Shown here piece after piece: positions 6,440-12,559 of a stretch of 12,787 nt of DNA (position 1 is its first letter; every line of letters begins with the position of its first letter). Origin of the DNA: Bacteroidota bacterium. Lineage in GTDB: Bacteria > Bacteroidota > Bacteroidia > Bacteroidales > VadinHA17. The notes under the pieces were generated by a model. It had not been told where the DNA came from, did not search any database, and worked only from the letters and a program-made list of their open reading frames with translations. A program made the position numbers and the translations under genes. The stretch covers positions 1 to 12,787 of the forward strand of contig JAKLFN010000036.1 of assembly GCA_022711195.1 (NCBI GenBank), given 5' to 3'.

Positions 6440-7903
6440 TTAATCAAGAAGCTGTGCAACTTTCATTGCAAGATTTCTTCTTGAGAATTCTGAGGGAGGC
6501 GCCGGGGTCTTCCCCTGACCAGTTTTTATACAGCCAGAAATGAATTCTGTGATTCCTTCCTGGTCGTCATAGTCGAAGCACCTGCCGTATCCGCCGCTGT
6601 TGAGAATCGCGGCAGTGTCACCCGAAGTGGGACCCAGGCAAACAACAGGTTTGCCGGAAGCAATATACTCAAACAGTTTTCCAGGAAGAAAGCTTCTGTT
6701 GCCGGGATCTTTTGCAAGAACCAGAAGAAGCATTGATGCCGACAGCATCTGCCCTATCACAGTCCTGTGATCGGAGTAAGGTATGAATTCAAGATGCCCG
6801 GCGCCAAGCTCTGAGATAAGCCTGTTTTTCTGAACATCCGGTATGTGGCCCGTGAATTTCAGCAGCAGGTCCCTGCCCCCTGAAATAAGCTCCTTCAGCG
6901 ACATGATAAATCCATTTACGGGATATGATTCTGAGATGGTGCCTGTGTAAGAAATGGTAAATCTTTCAGGTGTCGAGGCAGTAAGACCTGAAAAATCCTC
7001 TTCGTCAAATCCGTTATGTATAATTTTTATTTTCTCCCCGCTGCCAGCCATTTTAGAGCTAAAAATCTTGCCGAGGGTTGGTCCTACTGTTGTAATTATG
7101 TCTGCTTTTGCCAATACAGCCTTTTCATAGTGGCTGTCAATTTTTCTTGAAAGAAGAGTAGGGTAGAAGAGATTGTAATAGTAAATATCTGTCCAGGGAT
7201 CGCGCAGGTCGGCCAGCCAGCGCAGGTGAGGGTATTTTTTTTTGAGTTTCAGCCCGATGAGCTGTGAGGAGTGTGGCGGGCTGGTTGTAATTATATTCCT
7301 GATGTCGTGTTTTTCGATAAGTTCGCAGGCTTTCCTGAAGGCATGTTTATTCCATCCCCTTCGCGGATCAGGAATGAAGAAGTTTCCTCTAATAAAACGT
7401 GAGATCTTTCCTCCTGGTGAATCATCGCGGTTTGTGGCGAAGCCTGCTGACGGCACTTTTGATTTATCACCGCCATAGAATCGGAACCAGTCTGTAGTCT
7501 TTGTGCGGTGTACTTCAGCAGCTGCCGGCACATCTTTTTCGAGGGAAAGGTCAGTTGCGGGGTATGCGGCATATTCCGGATCGACAGTAAGAATAACAGG
7601 CTGCCAGCCGGCTTCAGGAAGGTATTTAGAAAATTTCAGCCAGCGCTGGACACCTGCACCGCCACTGGGAGGCCAGTAGTATGTAACCACCAAGACCTTT
7701 CGGAGGAGGGGGGAGGAAGAGGCGATAGAGGCGTTAGAGGTCATAGAGGCGTTAGAGGCGATAGAGGCGTTAGAGGTCATAGAGGCGTTAGAGGCGATAG
7801 AGGCGTTAGAGGTCATAGAGGCGTTTGAGGCAATATAGGCAAGAGAGGCTGTAGTGGCATCAGCAAGATTTAAGGCATTAGTTTCATTCTGGGGAATGCT
7901 CAT
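6440..7903 (-). CDS. Glycosyltransferase (GT-B) with repeat-encoded N-terminal extension
   Basis: Glycosyltransferase of 487 residues from the ATG at 7903 (a TTG at 7909 is also in frame). Recognisable enzyme begins at about residue 67 with LRKVLVVTYYWPPSGGAGVQ, the usual N-terminus of a Bacteroidetes GT4-like family. It continues with TSPPHSSQLIG at 207-217, DLRDPWTD at 232-239, IHNGFDEEDF at 295-304, YTGTISESYP at 319-328 and GKLFEYIASGKPVV at 408-421. The first 66 residues are low complexity: a decayed Ala/Ser-rich lead, then three copies of the 12-residue unit NASMTSNASIAS encoded by a 36-base minisatellite. The ATG overlaps the TGA of the four-helix-bundle gene in ATGA, suggesting coupled translation. 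Each 36-base unit carries an in-frame ATG (residues 30, 42, 54), so shorter products starting inside the array are possible. No signal peptide is evident. Confidence 0.82.
   Translation of the reverse strand: MSIPQNETNALNLADATTASLAYIASNASMTSNASIASNASMTSNASIASNASMTSNASIASSSPLLRKVLVVTYYWPPSGGAGVQRWLKFSKYLPEAGWQPVILTVDPEYAAYPATDLSLEKDVPAAAEVHRTKTTDWFRFYGGDKSKVPSAGFATNRDDSPGGKISRFIRGNFFIPDPRRGWNKHAFRKACELIEKHDIRNIITTSPPHSSQLIGLKLKKKYPHLRWLADLRDPWTDIYYYNLFYPTLLSRKIDSHYEKAVLAKADIITTVGPTLGKIFSSKMAGSGEKIKIIHNGFDEEDFSGLTASTPERFTISYTGTISESYPVNGFIMSLKELISGGRDLLLKFTGHIPDVQKNRLISELGAGHLEFIPYSDHRTVIGQMLSASMLLLVLAKDPGNRSFLPGKLFEYIASGKPVVCLGPTSGDTAAILNSGGYGRCFDYDDQEGITEFISGCIKTGQGKTPAPPSEFSRRNLAMKVAQLLD
7719..7862. 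repeat. 9-base GAGGC-type tandem array, ordered as three 36-base units
   Basis: On the plus strand 16 consecutive 9-base units run from 7719 to 7862. Twelve follow the fixed order GAGGCGATA, GAGGCGTTA, GAGGTCATA, GAGGCGTTA, making three 36-base units (7719-7754, 7755-7790, 7791-7826) that differ only at the last base. The remaining four decay towards the four-helix-bundle gene: GAGGCAATA, TAGGCAAGA, GAGGCTGTA, GTGGCATCA. The whole array is inside the N-terminus of the minus-strand glycosyltransferase; since 9 and 36 are multiples of 3, copy-number change would keep the frame. The exact 9-mer GAGGCTGTA at 7845-7853 is the reverse complement of the unit in the array at 8299-8385. Confidence 0.95.
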
Positions 7904-8256
7904 TTGCAAATCGATGAAATTAGTTTATTTAATAAGTAGCTTACTTCAGCTGTCATTTCTTCAAGCTTCAGGTAGATATCTTTATCAAGATATCCAAGAT
8001 CTTTTGAGAGAAGCAGATGATAGCGTGTTTCCTCAAGGGATCCCCTGGAATTATATAGAAAAGAAACAAATTCCTTATCTGTTCTTTTTGATTTTCCTTC
8101 TACTATATTAGCTGCAATTGAACTTGCCGACCTTCTTAATTGAGTCACCAATCCAAACCTTTCTTCTTCCGGGAAATTATTTGTAATCTTATAAACCTCA
8201 AGTACCAGTGAATGAGATTTCTGCCAGACAATCAAATCTTTCCAGGGATGCGCCAT
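7900..8256 (-). CDS. Four-helix-bundle protein (TIGR02436, 23S rRNA intervening-sequence protein family)
   Basis: Small protein of 118 residues from the ATG at 8256; a TTG extension to 8283 adds nine unconvincing residues. The family pattern is clear: N-terminal WKDLIVWQKSHSLVLEVYK, NNFPEEERFGLVTQLRRSAS, the signature SIAANIVEGKSK, then EFVSFLYNSRGSLEETRYHL and LSKDLGYL in the third helix. Founding members are encoded in 23S rRNA intervening sequences, but many Bacteroidetes copies, like this one, are free-standing. Molecular function is unknown; the fold is a four-helix bundle that oligomerises and is related to the Avd accessory protein of diversity-generating retroelements, though no reverse transcriptase is present here. 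The gene is visibly more A+T rich than its neighbours, sits alone between two inverted repeat arrays inside a same-strand gene set, and overlaps the next start by four bases. It looks like an inserted cassette. Confidence 0.88.
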   Translation of the reverse strand: MAHPWKDLIVWQKSHSLVLEVYKITNNFPEEERFGLVTQLRRSASSIAANIVEGKSKRTDKEFVSFLYNSRGSLEETRYHLLLSKDLGYLDKDIYLKLEEMTAEVSYLLNKLISSICK

Positions 8257-8298
8257 AGAATTTTGTATAATTATGAACTTCAATCTAATTATTTCTCA

Positions 8299-8385
8299 TA
8301 CAGCCTCGCCTCTACAGCCTCTACAGCCTCTACAGCCTCTACAGCCTCGCCTCTACAGCCTCGCCTCTACAGCCTCTACAGCCTC
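8299..8385. repeat. 9-base TACAGCCTC array, inverted relative to the 7719-7862 array
   Basis: Eight copies of TACAGCCTC at 8299, 8313, 8322, 8331, 8340, 8354, 8368 and 8377, with an extra GCCTC pentamer after the first, fifth and sixth copies. On the minus strand this reads GAGGCTGTA with occasional GAGGC doubling. It fills most of the gap between glyS and the four-helix-bundle gene and overlaps the last ten bases of glyS: the glyS stop TAG (8378-8376) is part of a repeat unit. Together with the plus-strand GAGGC array beyond the gene it forms an inverted pair around the four-helix-bundle gene. Confidence 0.95.
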
Positions 8386-9926
8386 TTCAGCAGCGAAACG
8401 ATACTTACTCTTTCGAAAATGATATCTTTCAGCTGTGAAATATTCACCCTTTCCTGCAACATAGAATCACGATACCTGATAGTAACAGTATTATCTTCAA
8501 TAGTCTGATGGTCAATGGTTATGCAATATGGTGTTCCGATAGCATCCTGTCTCCTGTAGCGTCGTCCGATAGAATCCTTGTCGTCGTACTGGCAGTTAAA
8601 TTCGAATTTGAGTTCTTTCATTATCTTTTCAGAAATCTCAGGCAACCCGTCCTTTTTAACAAGGGGCATGACTGCCAGCTTCACAGGCGCAAGTACTGAT
8701 GGAAGCTTAAGGACGATACGGGTATCTGTTGTTCCGTCCTCTTTCTTCAGTTCTTCTTCATGATATGCTGCAGAAATTACCTGCAGGAACATACGGTCGA
8801 CGCCGATCGATGTTTCTATCACAAAAGGAACGTATGATTCGCCTTTTTCAGGATCGAAATACTGCATCTTTTTCCCGCTGTACTGCTGGTGCTGTTTCAG
8901 GTCGAAGTCGGTACGTGAATGTATTCCTTCAACCTCCTTGAATCCGAACGGGAACCTGAATTCTATATCGGTAGCAGCATTAGCATAATGGGCAAGTTTG
9001 GTATGATCGTGAAAGCGGTAGTTCTCTGCACCGAAACCGAGAGACTGATGCCATTTCATCCTGGTGGTCTTCCAGCGGCTGAACCAGTCGAGTTCGCTGC
9101 CGGGCTGTACGAAGAACTGCATTTCCATCTGCTCAAATTCTCTCATTCTGAAAATAAACTGACGGGCAACTATCTCATTACGGAATGCTTTACCGATCTG
9201 TGCAATACCAAAAGGAATTTTCATCCTTCCTGTTTTCTGTACATTCAGGAAGTTCACAAAGATACCCTGGGCTGTCTCTGGCCTCAGGTACACCTTATTT
9301 GCACCTTCTGAGGTCGATCCCATTTCGGTGGCAAACATGAGGTTGAACTGCCGGACATCGGTCCAGTTCCTGGTACCCGATATCGGGCAGACTATCTCAT
9401 TGTCTATAATTATCTGACGGATCTCTGCCAGGTCTGTTTCATTGAGCGCTTTTGAAAACCTTGCATTAAGTTCGTCGATCTTTGCCTGGTTTGCAATGAC
9501 TCTCTGGTTTGTCTCCCTGAATTTCTTTTCATCGAAGGAAGCGCCGAATTTCTCCCTGGCCTTTTCAACTTCCTTATTGATCTTGTCTTCGATTTTTGCA
9601 AGATGTTCCTCTATCAGGACGTCGGCGCGATATCTTTTCTTGGAATCTTTGTTGTCGATAAGCGGATCATTGAACGCGTCGACATGGCCGGAAGCTTTCC
9701 AGATAGTCGGATGCATAAAAATAGCGGAGTCGAGGCCAACGATATTTTCATTCAGGAGGACCATGCTGTCCCACCAGTATTTTTTAATATTGTTTTTCAG
9801 TTCAACGCCGTACTGGCCGTAATCATATACAGCGCTTAGTCCGTCGTAAATTTCACTTGAAGGGAATACATAGCCATATTCCTTACAATGTGCCACCAGT
9901 TTTTTAAAAACATCATCCTGAGCCAT
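8376..9926 (-). CDS. glyS: Glycine--tRNA ligase (class II, alpha2 type)
   Basis: Glycyl-tRNA synthetase of 516 residues, charging tRNA-Gly with glycine in the cytosol (EC 6.1.1.14). It is the single-chain homodimeric form, not the alpha/beta enzyme. Visible landmarks: HPTIWKASGHVDAFNDPL at 72-89, YRADVLIEEH at 99-108, CPISGTRNW at 180-188, FATEMGSTSEGANKVYLRPE at 198-217, motif 2 with AFRNE at 247-251, EQMEMQFFV at 265-273, motif 3 ETSIGVDRMF at 371-380, and a C-terminal anticodon-binding domain from about 410 with GRRYRRQDAIGTPYC at 454-468. The frame can be read back to a TTG at 10025, but those 33 residues span the promoter and repeats, so MAQDDVFKKL at 9926 is the start. The C-terminus SLLKRL matches family ends; its TAG stop lies in the first unit of the 8299-8385 array. 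Confidence 0.97.
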   Translation of the reverse strand: MAQDDVFKKLVAHCKEYGYVFPSSEIYDGLSAVYDYGQYGVELKNNIKKYWWDSMVLLNENIVGLDSAIFMHPTIWKASGHVDAFNDPLIDNKDSKKRYRADVLIEEHLAKIEDKINKEVEKAREKFGASFDEKKFRETNQRVIANQAKIDELNARFSKALNETDLAEIRQIIIDNEIVCPISGTRNWTDVRQFNLMFATEMGSTSEGANKVYLRPETAQGIFVNFLNVQKTGRMKIPFGIAQIGKAFRNEIVARQFIFRMREFEQMEMQFFVQPGSELDWFSRWKTTRMKWHQSLGFGAENYRFHDHTKLAHYANAATDIEFRFPFGFKEVEGIHSRTDFDLKQHQQYSGKKMQYFDPEKGESYVPFVIETSIGVDRMFLQVISAAYHEEELKKEDGTTDTRIVLKLPSVLAPVKLAVMPLVKKDGLPEISEKIMKELKFEFNCQYDDKDSIGRRYRRQDAIGTPYCITIDHQTIEDNTVTIRYRDSMLQERVNISQLKDIIFERVSIVSLLKRL

Positions 9927-9954
9927 AGAATCTTGTATTTCTTTTTGCGGGAAG

Positions 9955-9985
9955 CAAAAGTAAAGCAAAAATGCGTGTTTTACAA
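9955..9985 (-). promoter_or_regulatory. Bacteroidetes-type promoter for glyS
   Basis: On the minus strand, TTG (9985-9983), a 20-base spacer, then TACTTTTG (9962-9955) match the Bacteroidetes primary-sigma consensus TTG...TAnnTTTG exactly in both boxes. Transcription would start near 9948, about 20 bases before the glyS ATG at 9926. The 29-base tandem repeat begins about 40 bases further upstream. I found no comparably clean promoter between glyS and position 1, so it may also serve the downstream genes. Confidence 0.75.
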
Positions 9986-10023
9986 GGCTGGCAGGTTGAA
10001 GAAGGATAATTAGTGAATAAAAC

Positions 10024-10098
10024 AAACCCTATCCCCGACCCTTGGTTCAAAGAAACCCTATCCCCGACCGTTGGTTCAAAAAACCCTATCCCCGACCC
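10024..10098. repeat. 28-29-base tandem repeat, 2.6 copies
   Basis: Units start at 10024, 10053 and 10081 with the shared core AAACCCTATCCCCGACC. The first two continue as (C/G)TTGGTTCAAA; the third breaks after 18 bases into the palindrome at 10096-10123. The core resembles the reverse complement of the GGGTCAGGGAGGGGTTT flank at 10178-10194, so these look like partial, inverted relatives of the palindromic repeat family next to them. No unique spacers, so not a CRISPR array. Confidence 0.9.
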
Positions 10099-10292
10099 TT
10101 CCCCTTAAATGTAAGGGGAAGGGAGGTGGACGGAATTGTAGTTGGTATACACCCCCTCCCCCTTAATTTTAAGGGGAGGGTCAGGGAGGGGTTTAAAAAT
10201 TGCAAGAATGGGAAGGGAGGTGGACGGAATTGCAGTTGGTATACACCCCCTCCCCCTTAATTTTAAGGGGAGGGCCCGGGTGGGGTTCAAAA
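10096..10292. repeat. Left palindromic repeat block (three palindromes)
   Basis: Three imperfect palindromes: 10096-10123 (12-base arms, core CCCCTTAAATGTAAGGGG), 10154-10180 and 10248-10274 (core CCCCTTAATTTTAAGGGG, with one extra C in the left arm). They are joined by a conserved linker, AGGTGGACGGAATTG(T/C)AG then TTGGTATACACCCC, starting at 10124 and 10217. The stretch 10152-10292 recurs as a direct repeat at 10777-10916 on the other side of the DUF559 gene. Hairpins of this strength could act as transcription barriers behind the DUF559 gene, but they lack a following U-tract. Confidence 0.93.
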
Positions 10293-10316
10293 ATTCACAT
10301 CAATAATTTGTATTTA

Positions 10317-10700
10317 TTAGTTGGCGATAAACTTTTTAATCTTAACCACAACATTTTCAATATTCTCCAACTCTTCATTCTTAATTCTTAAAACTCTGAT
10401 TCCGCGTGATAACATTTTTTCATCTCTTTCCTGATCATATTCCTTCCTGGTATCATGTATCTTTCCATCAAGTTCTATTACAACCTGAAGTTCTGCGCAA
10501 TAGAAATCGGCGATATAAAAATCAACCCAATCATTGTCGATCCTGATAAATATGGGGTGCTGACGCAGGAAACGGTAGCCTGAGGTTTTTTTTCTCCTTA
10601 ATACTTCCCAAAGAATTTTTTCAGAAGACGTAGGATTGTTCCGAAGGTCTCGTGCAAGCAATAGTATTCCCATATAATGCCTATAATGAATATGAGACAT
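10317..10700 (-). CDS. DUF559 protein, Vsr/PD-(D/E)XK endonuclease-like
   Basis: Protein of 127 residues of the DUF559 family, a small relative of very-short-patch-repair (Vsr) and other PD-(D/E)XK-fold nucleases; its biochemical activity is not established. Family features in order: LLLARDLRNNPTSSEKILWE at 13-32, GYRFLRQHPI at 41-50, YIADFYC at 62-68 with Asp65, VVIELDGKIHD at 73-83 with Glu76 and Asp78, DQERDEKMLSRGIRVLRIKN at 89-108. All the usual acidic positions are intact, so it is not obviously degenerate. The ATG at 10700 is used; Met10 (MGILLLARDLR) is an alternative. It stands alone between 140-base direct repeats, reads opposite to nadB, and is more A+T rich than both neighbours. 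Its 76-base upstream stretch is very A+T rich with only a near-match to TAnnTTTG. Confidence 0.87.
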   Translation of the reverse strand: MSHIHYRHYMGILLLARDLRNNPTSSEKILWEVLRRKKTSGYRFLRQHPIFIRIDNDWVDFYIADFYCAELQVVIELDGKIHDTRKEYDQERDEKMLSRGIRVLRIKNEELENIENVVVKIKKFIAN

Positions 10701-10776: not shown

Positions 10777-10916
10777 CCCCCTCCCCTTAATTTCAAGGGG
10801 AGGGGCCCGGGGAGGGGTTTAAAAAATGCAAGAAGCGGAAGGGAGGTGGACGGAATTGCAGTTGGGATACACCCCTCCCCTTAATTTTAAGGGGAGGGCC
10901 CGGGTGGGGTTCAAAA
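10777..10916. repeat. Right palindromic repeat, direct copy of 10152-10292
   Basis: 140 bases aligning end to end with 10152-10292 (141 bases) in the same orientation, differing at a few scattered positions. It contains palindromes at 10777-10805 and 10872-10898 (core CCCCTTAATTTTAAGGGG, here with matched C and G runs), joined by the same AGGTGGACGGAATTGCAG linker, and ends in GGGCCCGGGTGGGGTTCAAAA-type sequence like the left copy. It ends 68 bases before the nadB start. Confidence 0.93.
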
Positions 10917-10984
10917 CCACGGTGGGCAAAAATCATAATTCTTTCCATTATTGTTATCTTTACCAATCCATAATTATTTCTGAG

Positions 10985-12559
10985 ATGAAAAAACGAACCG
11001 ATTTCCTTGTTATTGGTTCAGGTATAGCAGGACTGACTTTTGCATTAAGAGCATCAAAATTTGGTAAAGTGTCTGTAATTACAAAAGCAGCGCTTGATGA
11101 TACAAACACGAAATATGCACAGGGAGGAATTGCAGCTGTTTTTGCCAAACCCGACAATTTTGAGAAACATATAAAGGATACTCTTGTTGCAGGTGCAGGC
11201 TGCTGCGACGAAGCAGTCGTAAGAATGGTGGTCAGCGAGGCTCCCGACAGGATCAACGACCTTATCGGATTCGGAGTTCCCTTTGATAAAAAAGAGGATG
11301 GCACCTACGACCTGGCCCGGGAAGGAGGTCACTCTGAACACAGGATACTCCATTACAAGGATAAGACCGGGGAGGCCATCCAGGAAACACTTATTGAAAG
11401 GGTCAGGAAAGATCCGAACATAGAAATCTATGAGAACCACTTTGCCATAGAGATACTTACACAGCATCACCTGGGAGAGATCGTCAAACGTAATTATCCG
11501 GGAATAGAGTGCTATGGCGCTTATGTTGCTGATCTTGCAAGCCAGAATGTGATCTCTTTTCTTTCAAAAGTGACTATCGTGGCTACCGGAGGAATTGGAA
11601 ATGTTTACCTCACTACCACAAACCCCGAGATTGCTACAGGCGACGGTATTGCTATGGTTTACAGGGCAAAGGGAACGATCGAGAATATGGAGTTTGTACA
11701 GTTCCATCCAACATCGTTATATGATCCGAACCACCGGCCTTCATTCCTGATTACCGAGGCTCTGCGGGGATTTGGTGCAGTGCTCAAGAATATGCGGGGA
11801 GAACAGTTCATGAACCGTTACGATAACCGCGGCTCACTGGCCCCCCGCGATATAGTGGCGCGCGCCATCGACAATGAAATGAAAATCTGGGGCGACGACC
11901 ATGTGTGGCTCGACTGTACACATCTTAATGCTGATGCTCTCATGGACCATTTCCCCAATGTATACGAACATTGTAAAGCCCGAGGAATAGATATTACTAG
12001 AGATATGATCCCGGTGGTGCCTGTTCAGCACTATTCTTGCGGAGGAATAAAAGTCGATGTCAACGGACAGACTAACATCGACAGGCTTTATGCACTCGGC
12101 GAAGTATCATCAACAGGACTGCATGGTGCAAACAGGCTGGCATCAAATTCACTTATTGAAGCAGCAGTGTATGGTCACCGTGCCGCTATGCATTCAGCAG
12201 GAAGAATTAAAGAATTATCGGTTGAGGAGAGAATACCTGAGTGGGACTATAAAGGAACAACACACCTTGAGGAGATGGTGTTGATTACCCAGAGTATAAA
12301 TGAGGTGCGGATGATCATGAGCAATTATGTCGGTATCGTCCGGTCAGATCTTCGTCTCGAAAGAGCAATGGTACGCCTGGAGATTCTTTACCAGGAAATA
12401 GAGAGCCTCTATAAGCGATCACTTATCTCCAAGAAGATATGCGAGGTGAGAAACCTCATCAATGTAGGATACATAATTATTAAGCACGCAATGGCACGCA
12501 AGGAAAGCATAGGGCTCCATTATTCCATCGACTATCCAAAGAAAACCCTGAACACTTAA
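10985..12559 (+). CDS. nadB: L-aspartate oxidase
   Basis: FAD flavoprotein of 524 residues that oxidises L-aspartate to iminoaspartate, the first step of de novo NAD synthesis (EC 1.4.3.16), used by quinolinate synthase NadA. The N-terminal FAD dinucleotide fold is DFLVIGSGIAGLTFALRA at 6-23, followed by NTKYAQGGIAAV at 41-52. Family landmarks: GGHSEHRILHYKDKTG at 114-129, VATGGIGN at 199-206, FVQFHPTSLY with His241, APRDIVARAI with Arg288, VQHYSCGGI with His349, and LYALGEVSSTGLHGANRLAS at 368-387. A C-terminal helical domain starts near residue 410. Fumarate reductase/succinate dehydrogenase flavoproteins are relatives, but the NTKYAQGGIAA and SSTGLHGANRLASNSL signatures favour NadB. The frame reads back to an ATG at 10826 inside the repeat; the ATG at 10985 fits the family start. 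No nadA or nadC is in the window; the next gene is 22 bases downstream. Confidence 0.96.
   Translation: MKKRTDFLVIGSGIAGLTFALRASKFGKVSVITKAALDDTNTKYAQGGIAAVFAKPDNFEKHIKDTLVAGAGCCDEAVVRMVVSEAPDRINDLIGFGVPFDKKEDGTYDLAREGGHSEHRILHYKDKTGEAIQETLIERVRKDPNIEIYENHFAIEILTQHHLGEIVKRNYPGIECYGAYVADLASQNVISFLSKVTIVATGGIGNVYLTTTNPEIATGDGIAMVYRAKGTIENMEFVQFHPTSLYDPNHRPSFLITEALRGFGAVLKNMRGEQFMNRYDNRGSLAPRDIVARAIDNEMKIWGDDHVWLDCTHLNADALMDHFPNVYEHCKARGIDITRDMIPVVPVQHYSCGGIKVDVNGQTNIDRLYALGEVSSTGLHGANRLASNSLIEAAVYGHRAAMHSAGRIKELSVEERIPEWDYKGTTHLEEMVLITQSINEVRMIMSNYVGIVRSDLRLERAMVRLEILYQEIESLYKRSLISKKICEVRNLINVGYIIIKHAMARKESIGLHYSIDYPKKTLNT

What the first reader, a model, noticed from the sequence alone, without database searches (positions are those of the whole stretch)
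7719..8385. Four-helix-bundle gene enclosed by inverted arrays of the same 9-base repeat
Plus-strand GAGGC-type 9-mers (7719-7862) and their reverse complement TACAGCCTC (8299-8385) face each other across a lone TIGR02436 gene; the exact 9-mer GAGGCTGTA occurs at 7845-7853 and, inverted, in all eight right-hand units. The family is known as a passenger in 23S rRNA intervening sequences but its free-standing copies have no known function. A gene with its own repeat pair, wedged into a compact same-strand gene set, suggests a minimal element that spreads or is copied by short-repeat recombination. This may be an undescribed cassette type.
Basis: partly seen in the sequence, partly recalled or inferred. 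Interest (0 to 1): 0.75.

Follow-up and report, generated by a model that had tools for sequence, protein, structure and literature searches.

The report
Repeat-armed mobile four-helix-bundle gene element
A small gene of unknown function sits between two mirror-image stretches of short repeats, and a similar layout, with other repeat words, surrounds many copies of this gene family that we checked in distant bacteria, which makes it look like a tiny mobile element that inserts between genes.

Summary
In detail: GAGGYNNTA 9-mers fill 7719-7853 and TACAGCCTC occurs eight times in 8299-8385, inverted across a TIGR02436/PF05635 (IVP) gene. It is general, not local. In 63 of 100 Bacteroidales IVP copies the two flanks are more complementary than the 99th percentile of mismatched flank pairs, with repeat units that differ between copies. 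The layout recurs in cyanobacterial plasmids and around an IVP gene inside a 23S rRNA gene of Azospirillum. Filled and empty sites can be compared: in one relative only the glyS stop codon and one base separate glyS from the next ATG; a Nostoc plasmid with 97.7% identical flanks lacks an element that elsewhere has GTAAT at both ends. Truncated and arms-only forms occur at that site. In one genome two 416-bp copies (85% identical) lie in unrelated flanks. I read this as a free-standing, mobile relative of 23S rRNA intervening sequences: IVP gene in the loop, tandem arrays as the stem. RNase III excision and a role of IVP in movement are inferred. GU pairs are not favoured over AC mismatches, which argues against selection on RNA pairing. 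The moving enzyme is unknown; 21 of 100 copies show no arms by this test.

The parts
7900..8256 (-). IVP gene (TIGR02436 / PF05635 four-helix-bundle protein), 118 aa, conserved start MAHPWKDL; stop TGA overlaps ATG of the next gene
   Evidence: six relatives 41-79% identical
8299..8385 (-). 5' arm in gene sense: tandem GAGGCTGTA units (eight exact), G-rich; starts in the glyS stop codon
   Evidence: inverted-pair score with the 3' arm 30.5, best among all 101 downstream flanks
7719..7862 (-). 3' arm in gene sense: tandem units that are the reverse complement of GAGGYNNTA, C-rich, also read in frame as the glycosyltransferase N-terminus
   Evidence: the region folds as RNA with z -7.28 against 20 shuffles
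7719..8385 (-). whole element: arm - IVP gene in the loop - arm, placed between the glyS stop codon and the glycosyltransferase
   Evidence: absent at the same junction in 6 of the 8 glycosyltransferase loci in which glyS was found (L168, L170, L174, L175, L176, L183); L172 has another gene there; L167 (same place as L001) has it (30 loci examined); L001-L004 have it (read by eye)
8376..10025 (-). glyS (glycine--tRNA ligase), upstream neighbour
   Evidence: NCBIfam NF003211 E 4.1e-200
6440..7903 (-). glycosyltransferase-like gene, downstream neighbour, N-terminus encoded by the 3' arm
   Evidence: PF13439 E 1.3e-5, below its curated cut-off; ATGA overlap read

Best explanation
This is one copy of a mobile, intervening-sequence-like element. 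Shown: a lone IVP gene lies in the loop between two inverted arrays of short tandem units; the layout recurs at a majority of the IVP copies tested, with differing units; elements are present or absent at otherwise matching junctions, with 3-7-nt direct repeats at four of seven sites; truncated and arms-only forms exist. Inferred (about 45%): in the operon transcript the arms pair into a long stem that RNase III cuts, as in 23S rRNA intervening sequences, so insertion between genes is tolerated. Inferred (about 35%): the IVP protein binds the element's own stem or hairpin and helps an enzyme supplied in trans to move it. Arms probably stay alike through tandem homogenisation and fold-back copying rather than through selection on each base pair.
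For: Same-gene flanks exceed the 99th percentile of mismatched flank pairs in 63 of 100 copies and the 95th in 79 of 100; without four orthologues of this locus 62 and 76 of 96 (correcting). Of 9 copies fetched later, 6 and 7 exceed the same cuts; of 44 control genes, 1 and 4. In 800 kb of genome G029, 0.73% of 10,040 windows exceed the upper cut, while 4 of 6 IVP genes there do. The 5' arm has G>C in 56 of 63 elements and C>G in 5. Plasmid copies: 12 of 20 above the 95th and 9 of 20 above the 99th percentile. Azospirillum L159 has the same layout inside a full-length 23S rRNA match. Empty/filled sites: glyS junction; Nostoc linckia vs Trichormus with GTAAT at both ends, and TTCTA, ATG and TACTAAG at three others. 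Same site truncated (L292) and arms-only (L293). Two 416-bp copies, 85% identical, in otherwise unrelated loci of G057. Arm 12-mers of 4 of 6 elements are dispersed in their own genome.
Against: 21 of 100 copies do not pass the 95th percentile, among them the orthologue L003. Non-inverted (direct) similarity of the two flanks also passes the upper cut in 17 of 100. GU-compatible changes between arms (87) are not more frequent than AC-type changes (118); by element 20 vs 23 with 20 ties. Of seven filled/empty sites, B and D show a small replaced stretch and no direct repeat, G is unclear, the ATG repeat could be chance, and site C shows its repeat against one empty relative (L155) but not the more diverged one (L295). 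IVP shows no nuclease or recombinase domain in Pfam. Most IVP copies are not recent duplicates: median best identity 42% within the genome vs 56% to another genome, and only 6 of 82 have an own-genome partner of 80% or more; of those three pairs one is a neighbouring tandem pair and one is embedded in longer repeats. No expression or RNA-processing data were available.
Confidence: 0.62

Rival explanations
1. REP/RAYT-like relation: the arrays are a dispersed repeat family of each genome, moved as single-stranded hairpins by Y1 (HUH) transposases in trans, and IVP is an accessory whose gene rides between two such arrays.
For: Y1_Tnp genes go with IVP genes: 39 of 42 IVP-positive vs 7 of 18 IVP-negative genomes (Fisher p 2.2e-5; Spearman 0.63, 0.56 after genome size), against 0.11 for reverse transcriptase, 0.31 for DDE_Tnp_1 and 0.28 for DUF559 after genome size. 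Arm 12-mers of 4 of 6 elements are dispersed in G029.
Against: Direct repeats of 3-7 nt at four sites are not what HUH transposition is recalled to leave. The association is across genomes only, without control for ancestry or lifestyle; no Y1 gene was tested for a link to an element.
Confidence: 0.18
2. A retroelement: IVP works like Avd with a reverse transcriptase in trans, copying the stem-loop RNA back into DNA.
For: The protein also matches the Avd models below their cut-offs (DivGenRetAVD E 3.6e-8, bAvd E 7.2e-7). Short direct repeats of varying length would fit target-primed copying (recalled).
Against: Reverse transcriptase genes do not track IVP genes: 25 of 42 vs 8 of 18 genomes, Fisher p 0.40; 17 of 42 IVP-bearing assemblies show none, though assemblies may be incomplete.
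Confidence: 0.1
3. IVP genes are landed or retained by chance in repeat-rich intergenic regions; the arrays arise by replication slippage and have nothing to do with the gene.
For: Short tandem arrays are common in some of these genomes away from IVP: 81 in 800 kb of G029. A pair of inverted tandem arrays also flanks one unrelated 340-aa ORF there.
Against: Slippage does not by itself make two inverted arrays of the same unit on either side with fixed polarity (56 vs 5). Only that one non-IVP inverted pair of tandem arrays was seen among 15 non-IVP clusters in 800 kb. Elements insert and copy arm to arm.
Confidence: 0.07

Closest known systems
23S rRNA intervening sequences (IVS) with an S23p/IVP ORF
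   Same: Lone IVP ORF in the loop of a stem made of terminal inverted repeats; heptameric direct repeats reported next to the ORF in one IVS; called selfish, mobility proposed by others (PMC4990558, passages). L159 shows array arms in a 23S rRNA copy.
   Different: The copy here lies between protein genes, not in rRNA; arms are long tandem arrays; filled and empty sites in operons are seen.
Short tandemly repeated heptamer arrays (STRR) of cyanobacteria and heptamer arrays elsewhere
   Same: Several plasmid IVP elements have arms of heptamer arrays (that these are STRRs is recalled). Inverted heptamer pairs are reported in Xanthomonas (PMC4692102, passages).
   Different: Described as arrays alone; in the passages seen no paper ties them to IVP genes.
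REP sequences and RAYT (REPtron)
   Same: One gene flanked by inverted copies of a repeat family that is also dispersed in that genome (REPtron layout recalled).
   Different: IVP is not a Y1 transposase; arms are tandem arrays; short direct repeats at the ends of some copies.
Avd of diversity-generating retroelements
   Same: Related by profile.
   Different: Scores below the Avd cut-offs; no reverse transcriptase among the ten window proteins scanned.

Membership tests
TIGR02436 / PF05635 (23S rRNA IVP) | profile score above curated cut-off | tested here: met
   134.7 bits vs 33.8; 126.6 vs 24; solved relatives 2gsc and 2rld
23S rRNA intervening sequence | located inside an rRNA gene | tested here: not met
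   no Rfam match in the window; neighbours are glyS and a glycosyltransferase-like gene
23S rRNA intervening sequence | IVP ORF enclosed by complementary ends that can form a stem | tested here: met
   arm score 30.5; fold z -7.28
23S rRNA intervening sequence | excised by RNase III | not testable with these tools
   known for rRNA copies from PMC4990558 (passages)
REP/RAYT element | gene is a Y1 transposase | tested here: not met
   the gene is PF05635
DGR accessory protein Avd | scores over the Avd model cut-off | tested here: not met
   33.7 bits vs 80; bAvd 30.1 vs 40
Transposable element in the broad sense | presence/absence of a defined unit at the same junction | tested here: met
   glyS junction and sites A, B, C, C2, D, F, G; second copy in unrelated flanks
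Transposable element in the broad sense | direct repeats at the ends of the insertion | tested here: inconclusive
   3-7 nt at A, C, C2 and F; none at B and D; G unclear
Transposable element in the broad sense | encodes or uses a known transposase or recombinase | tested here: inconclusive
   none encoded by the IVP gene; Y1_Tnp correlates across genomes

The most novel reading that the evidence does not exclude
IVP genes are the core of a widespread class of mobile element whose ends are tandem short-repeat arrays, and dispersed heptamer arrays of bacteria (STRR-like) are in good part its gene-less, non-autonomous derivatives; 23S rRNA intervening sequences are merely the copies that landed in rRNA. 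This would give one origin to the IVS, to IVP genes in cas and other operons, and to heptamer repeats.
Probability: 0.4. Interest if true: 0.9.

Novelty: new variant of a known kind. Interest (0 to 1): 0.78.

Why it matters
TIGR02436/PF05635 genes are common (42 of 60 genomes sampled from one order, up to 20 per genome), and I know of no function for them outside rRNA. If they are the cargo of repeat-armed mobile elements, this explains why they turn up alone in operons, including 18 in cas loci counted by others (PMC3936711, passages), and it makes the old proposal that intervening sequences are mobile directly testable. It also offers a source for short tandem repeats whose spread was described as having no evident mechanism (PMC4679880, passages of the abstract).

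Tried and rejected
RNA-pairing test by GU excess: no excess (87 vs 118), so selection on RNA base pairs is not claimed. A reverse transcriptase partner: no association across 60 genomes. Dispersed arrays against IVP presence: 9 IVP-free genomes gave 12 arrays and 0 heptamer arrays in 728 kb; 14 IVP-bearing genomes gave 127 arrays and 81 heptamer arrays in 1,392 kb, 60 of these from G029 alone; Mann-Whitney p 0.047 (all) and 0.008 (heptamers); IVP count against density is not significant (Spearman 0.35, p 0.11); 7 of 14 IVP-bearing samples had no heptamer array. Two genomes (G020, all N; G057, 3.2 kb) were dropped. Samples differ in size and contig length, so this is suggestive only. A wider hunt for orthologues in 393 genomes found only G001 at high identity (79%; the next is 53%). 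How copies were chosen: one search counts 197 matches in 60 genomes (my sum of its table); I used the best-scoring loci it returned plus 40 regions picked by me from seven genomes, not a random draw. Of 112 domain hits, five duplicates and the faulty L006 row (index error) were dropped and 6 had too little flank, leaving 100. Arm alignments were printed and read for the first 60 of these 100 only. Of 38 plasmid records matched I fetched 20; for L159 and L162 I set the gene ends by hand. Literature: (and 122 for DUF559) searched open-licence PMC only; no paper linking inverted tandem arrays to IVP genes outside rRNA was seen in those listings or in the passages read (PMC4990558, PMC3936711, PMC4692102, PMC4679880, PMC10053308, PMC11270868, PMC2672173, PMC5524665, PMC8700078, PMC10910872; passages only, no paper read whole). 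Ralph and McClelland 1993 was not held.

Full report
What is in the window. Between glyS (8376-10025, minus) and a glycosyltransferase-like gene (6440-7903, minus) lies a 118-aa IVP gene (7900-8256, minus; PF05635 E 1.7e-39, TIGR02436 E 4.5e-37). Upstream in gene sense lie eight exact GAGGCTGTA units (8299-8385); downstream lie units that read as the reverse complement of GAGGYNNTA (7719-7853, then degenerate). Both patterns far exceed shuffles. The first upstream unit carries the glyS stop codon; the downstream array is translated as the glycosyltransferase N-terminus, whose likely ATG overlaps the IVP stop as ATGA (read). No Rfam family is present. The sense RNA folds with z -7.28 against 20 shuffles, as two complementary arrays must.

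Is it a local oddity? No. One scan of named genomes gave six relatives: five from Bacteroidales or Bacteroidetes records and one from a deltaproteobacterium. By eye, four of the five carry the gene at the same glyS-glycosyltransferase junction and one elsewhere. The family search gave 32 copies in those five genomes, and in 60 genomes drawn from the order of G001 (the genome of L001, titled Bacteroidales) it is present in 42. I scored the complementarity of upstream and downstream flanks by local alignment. Of 100 usable copies, 63 exceed the 99th percentile and 79 the 95th percentile of mismatched upstream-downstream pairs; without four orthologues of this locus, 62 and 76 of 96. In 56 of 100 the own downstream flank is the best of all. 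Direct, non-inverted similarity passes the upper cut in 17 of 100. The copies were chosen, not drawn at random (see Tried and rejected). Nine copies fetched later gave 6 and 7 over the same cuts, with one mismatched pair among them as high as 22.5. Of 44 control genes in the same loci, 1 and 4 pass; the one over the upper cut is the window's DUF559 gene, which has its own repeats (position matched by me).

Words differ between copies. Arms printed (first 60 of 100 copies) include GAGGCNNTA, GGAAGATATA, GACTGTAAG, GGCAGTC, GAATTACG and AGGTTACA; what recurs is that the two arms of one gene match each other inverted. Polarity is fixed: of 63 elements over the upper cut the upstream arm has more G than C in 56 and the reverse in 5; C makes up about a tenth of it (298 of 3,029 bases). 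[quoted passage not shown]); native genes in compact genomes may show a like bias, which I did not measure.

Background. In 800 kb of one genome (G029), 0.73% of 10,040 windows exceed the upper cut. They form 19 clusters; four sit on four of the six IVP genes there. Of the other 15, one is a pair of tandem heptamer arrays around a 340-aa ORF; by inspection the rest are palindromes, dispersed repeats, AT-rich matches or single unclear matches. Arrays as such are common in that genome (89 by the stricter count, 81 of them away from IVP; 121 by a looser one), so it is the inverted pair, not the array, that marks the IVP gene. The 12-mers of the arms are dispersed in their own genome: for four of six elements 51 to 165 matches outside IVP loci in 790 kb, against 1 to 6 in 728 kb of IVP-free genomes and 2 to 20 in 596 kb of other IVP-bearing genomes; the other two elements gave 14 and 4 against 3 and 0. 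A genome-level link between IVP genes and dispersed heptamers is suggestive but uneven.

Other phyla. A plasmid search found 38 records, Nostoc and its kin above all. In the 20 fetched, 12 of 20 same-gene pairs exceed the 95th percentile of mismatched pairs and 9 the 99th. Several genes are wedged in operons: cas6-IVP-cas4 in two cyanobacteria, cas10-IVP-cmr3, conjugation genes, and between nrdB and nrdA on the opposite strand. In Azospirillum lipoferum plasmid AZO_p2 the IVP gene, with arms of the same kind, lies inside a full-length 23S rRNA match. That copy is a classical intervening sequence and ties the free-standing copies to it.

Empty sites. Among 30 loci of the glycosyltransferase, glyS was found next to it in 8: one is the filled G001 copy, one (L172) has another gene between, and six lack the element; in L168 only the glyS stop codon and one base precede the next ATG. 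A Nostoc linckia plasmid with 97.7% identical flanks lacks the element carried by Trichormus and Scytonema plasmids; the filled site shows GTAAT on both sides. Direct repeats of 5 (TTCTA), 3 (ATG, possibly chance) and 7 nt (TACTAAG, with extra sequence beside the right arm) appear at three more sites; sites B and D, with more diverged flanks, show a small replaced stretch instead, and site G is unclear. TTCTA shows against the closer empty relative (L155), not against L295. At the first site a Nostoc C052 plasmid keeps the left arm and part of the gene only, and a Brasilonema plasmid has arms around a short loop with no gene. In genome G057 two 416-bp copies (85% identical) lie in otherwise unrelated loci. 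Still, only 6 of 82 copies have a partner of 80% or more in their own genome.

How it may work. Shown: architecture, recurrence, presence or absence at junctions, short direct repeats at some sites, decay forms. Inferred: pairing of the arms in RNA and cutting by RNase III, as established for 23S rRNA intervening sequences (PMC4990558, passages: 28-bp stem of terminal inverted repeats, RNase III excision, heptameric repeats beside the ORF, mobility proposed but unproven). Against that inference, changes that keep a GU pair are not more common than AC-type changes (87 vs 118); arms may instead stay alike through copying. Which enzyme moves the element is open. Across 60 genomes Y1_Tnp genes track IVP genes (39 of 42 vs 7 of 18; partial rank correlation with size removed 0.56), DDE_Tnp_1 (0.31) and DUF559 (0.28) less so and reverse transcriptases not (0.11). 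This is a correlation without phylogenetic control, and HUH enzymes are recalled not to leave direct repeats.

Known and new. The protein is a plain family member with solved relatives. The layout is that of a 23S rRNA intervening sequence, but the rRNA location, tested, is absent. Others noted IVP genes in cas loci (PMC3936711, passages), inverted heptamer pairs in Xanthomonas (PMC4692102, passages) and heptamers with no evident mechanism of spread (PMC4679880, passages) without, in what I read, joining them. The join is the new part.

Noticed in passing
window 10020-10300 and 10780-10920, around DUF559 gene 10317-10700 (-): A second lone gene in the same window, DUF559 (PF04480 E 3.2e-28), has its own repeat family (CCCCTCCCC..GGGGAGGG palindromes in longer units) on both sides; of 12 DUF559 loci fetched from other genomes, 8 by eye show such palindromes in both flanks. 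One paper search showed nothing on it.
   Followed up: partly
window 10826-11000: The listed nadB open frame starts inside a copy of that DUF559-linked repeat, so its true start is probably further downstream.
   Followed up: no
60 genomes (G001, G006-G064): IVP gene number correlates with Y1_Tnp number (Spearman 0.63) more than with DDE_Tnp_1 (0.40), DUF559 (0.34) or reverse transcriptase (0.26).
   Followed up: partly
L293 1090-1300 and about 1900-2000 (Brasilonema plasmid pBOCT2): A gene-less hairpin with array arms; its GC-rich loop recurs in the opposite orientation further down, like a miniature derivative.
   Followed up: no
L058 (G051): Both arms are mosaics of two unit types in mirrored order, suggesting the arms are copied from each other along their whole length.
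   Followed up: no
L105 (G032:C67): Two IVP domains with identical protein sequence lie in tandem about 540 bp apart.
   Followed up: no
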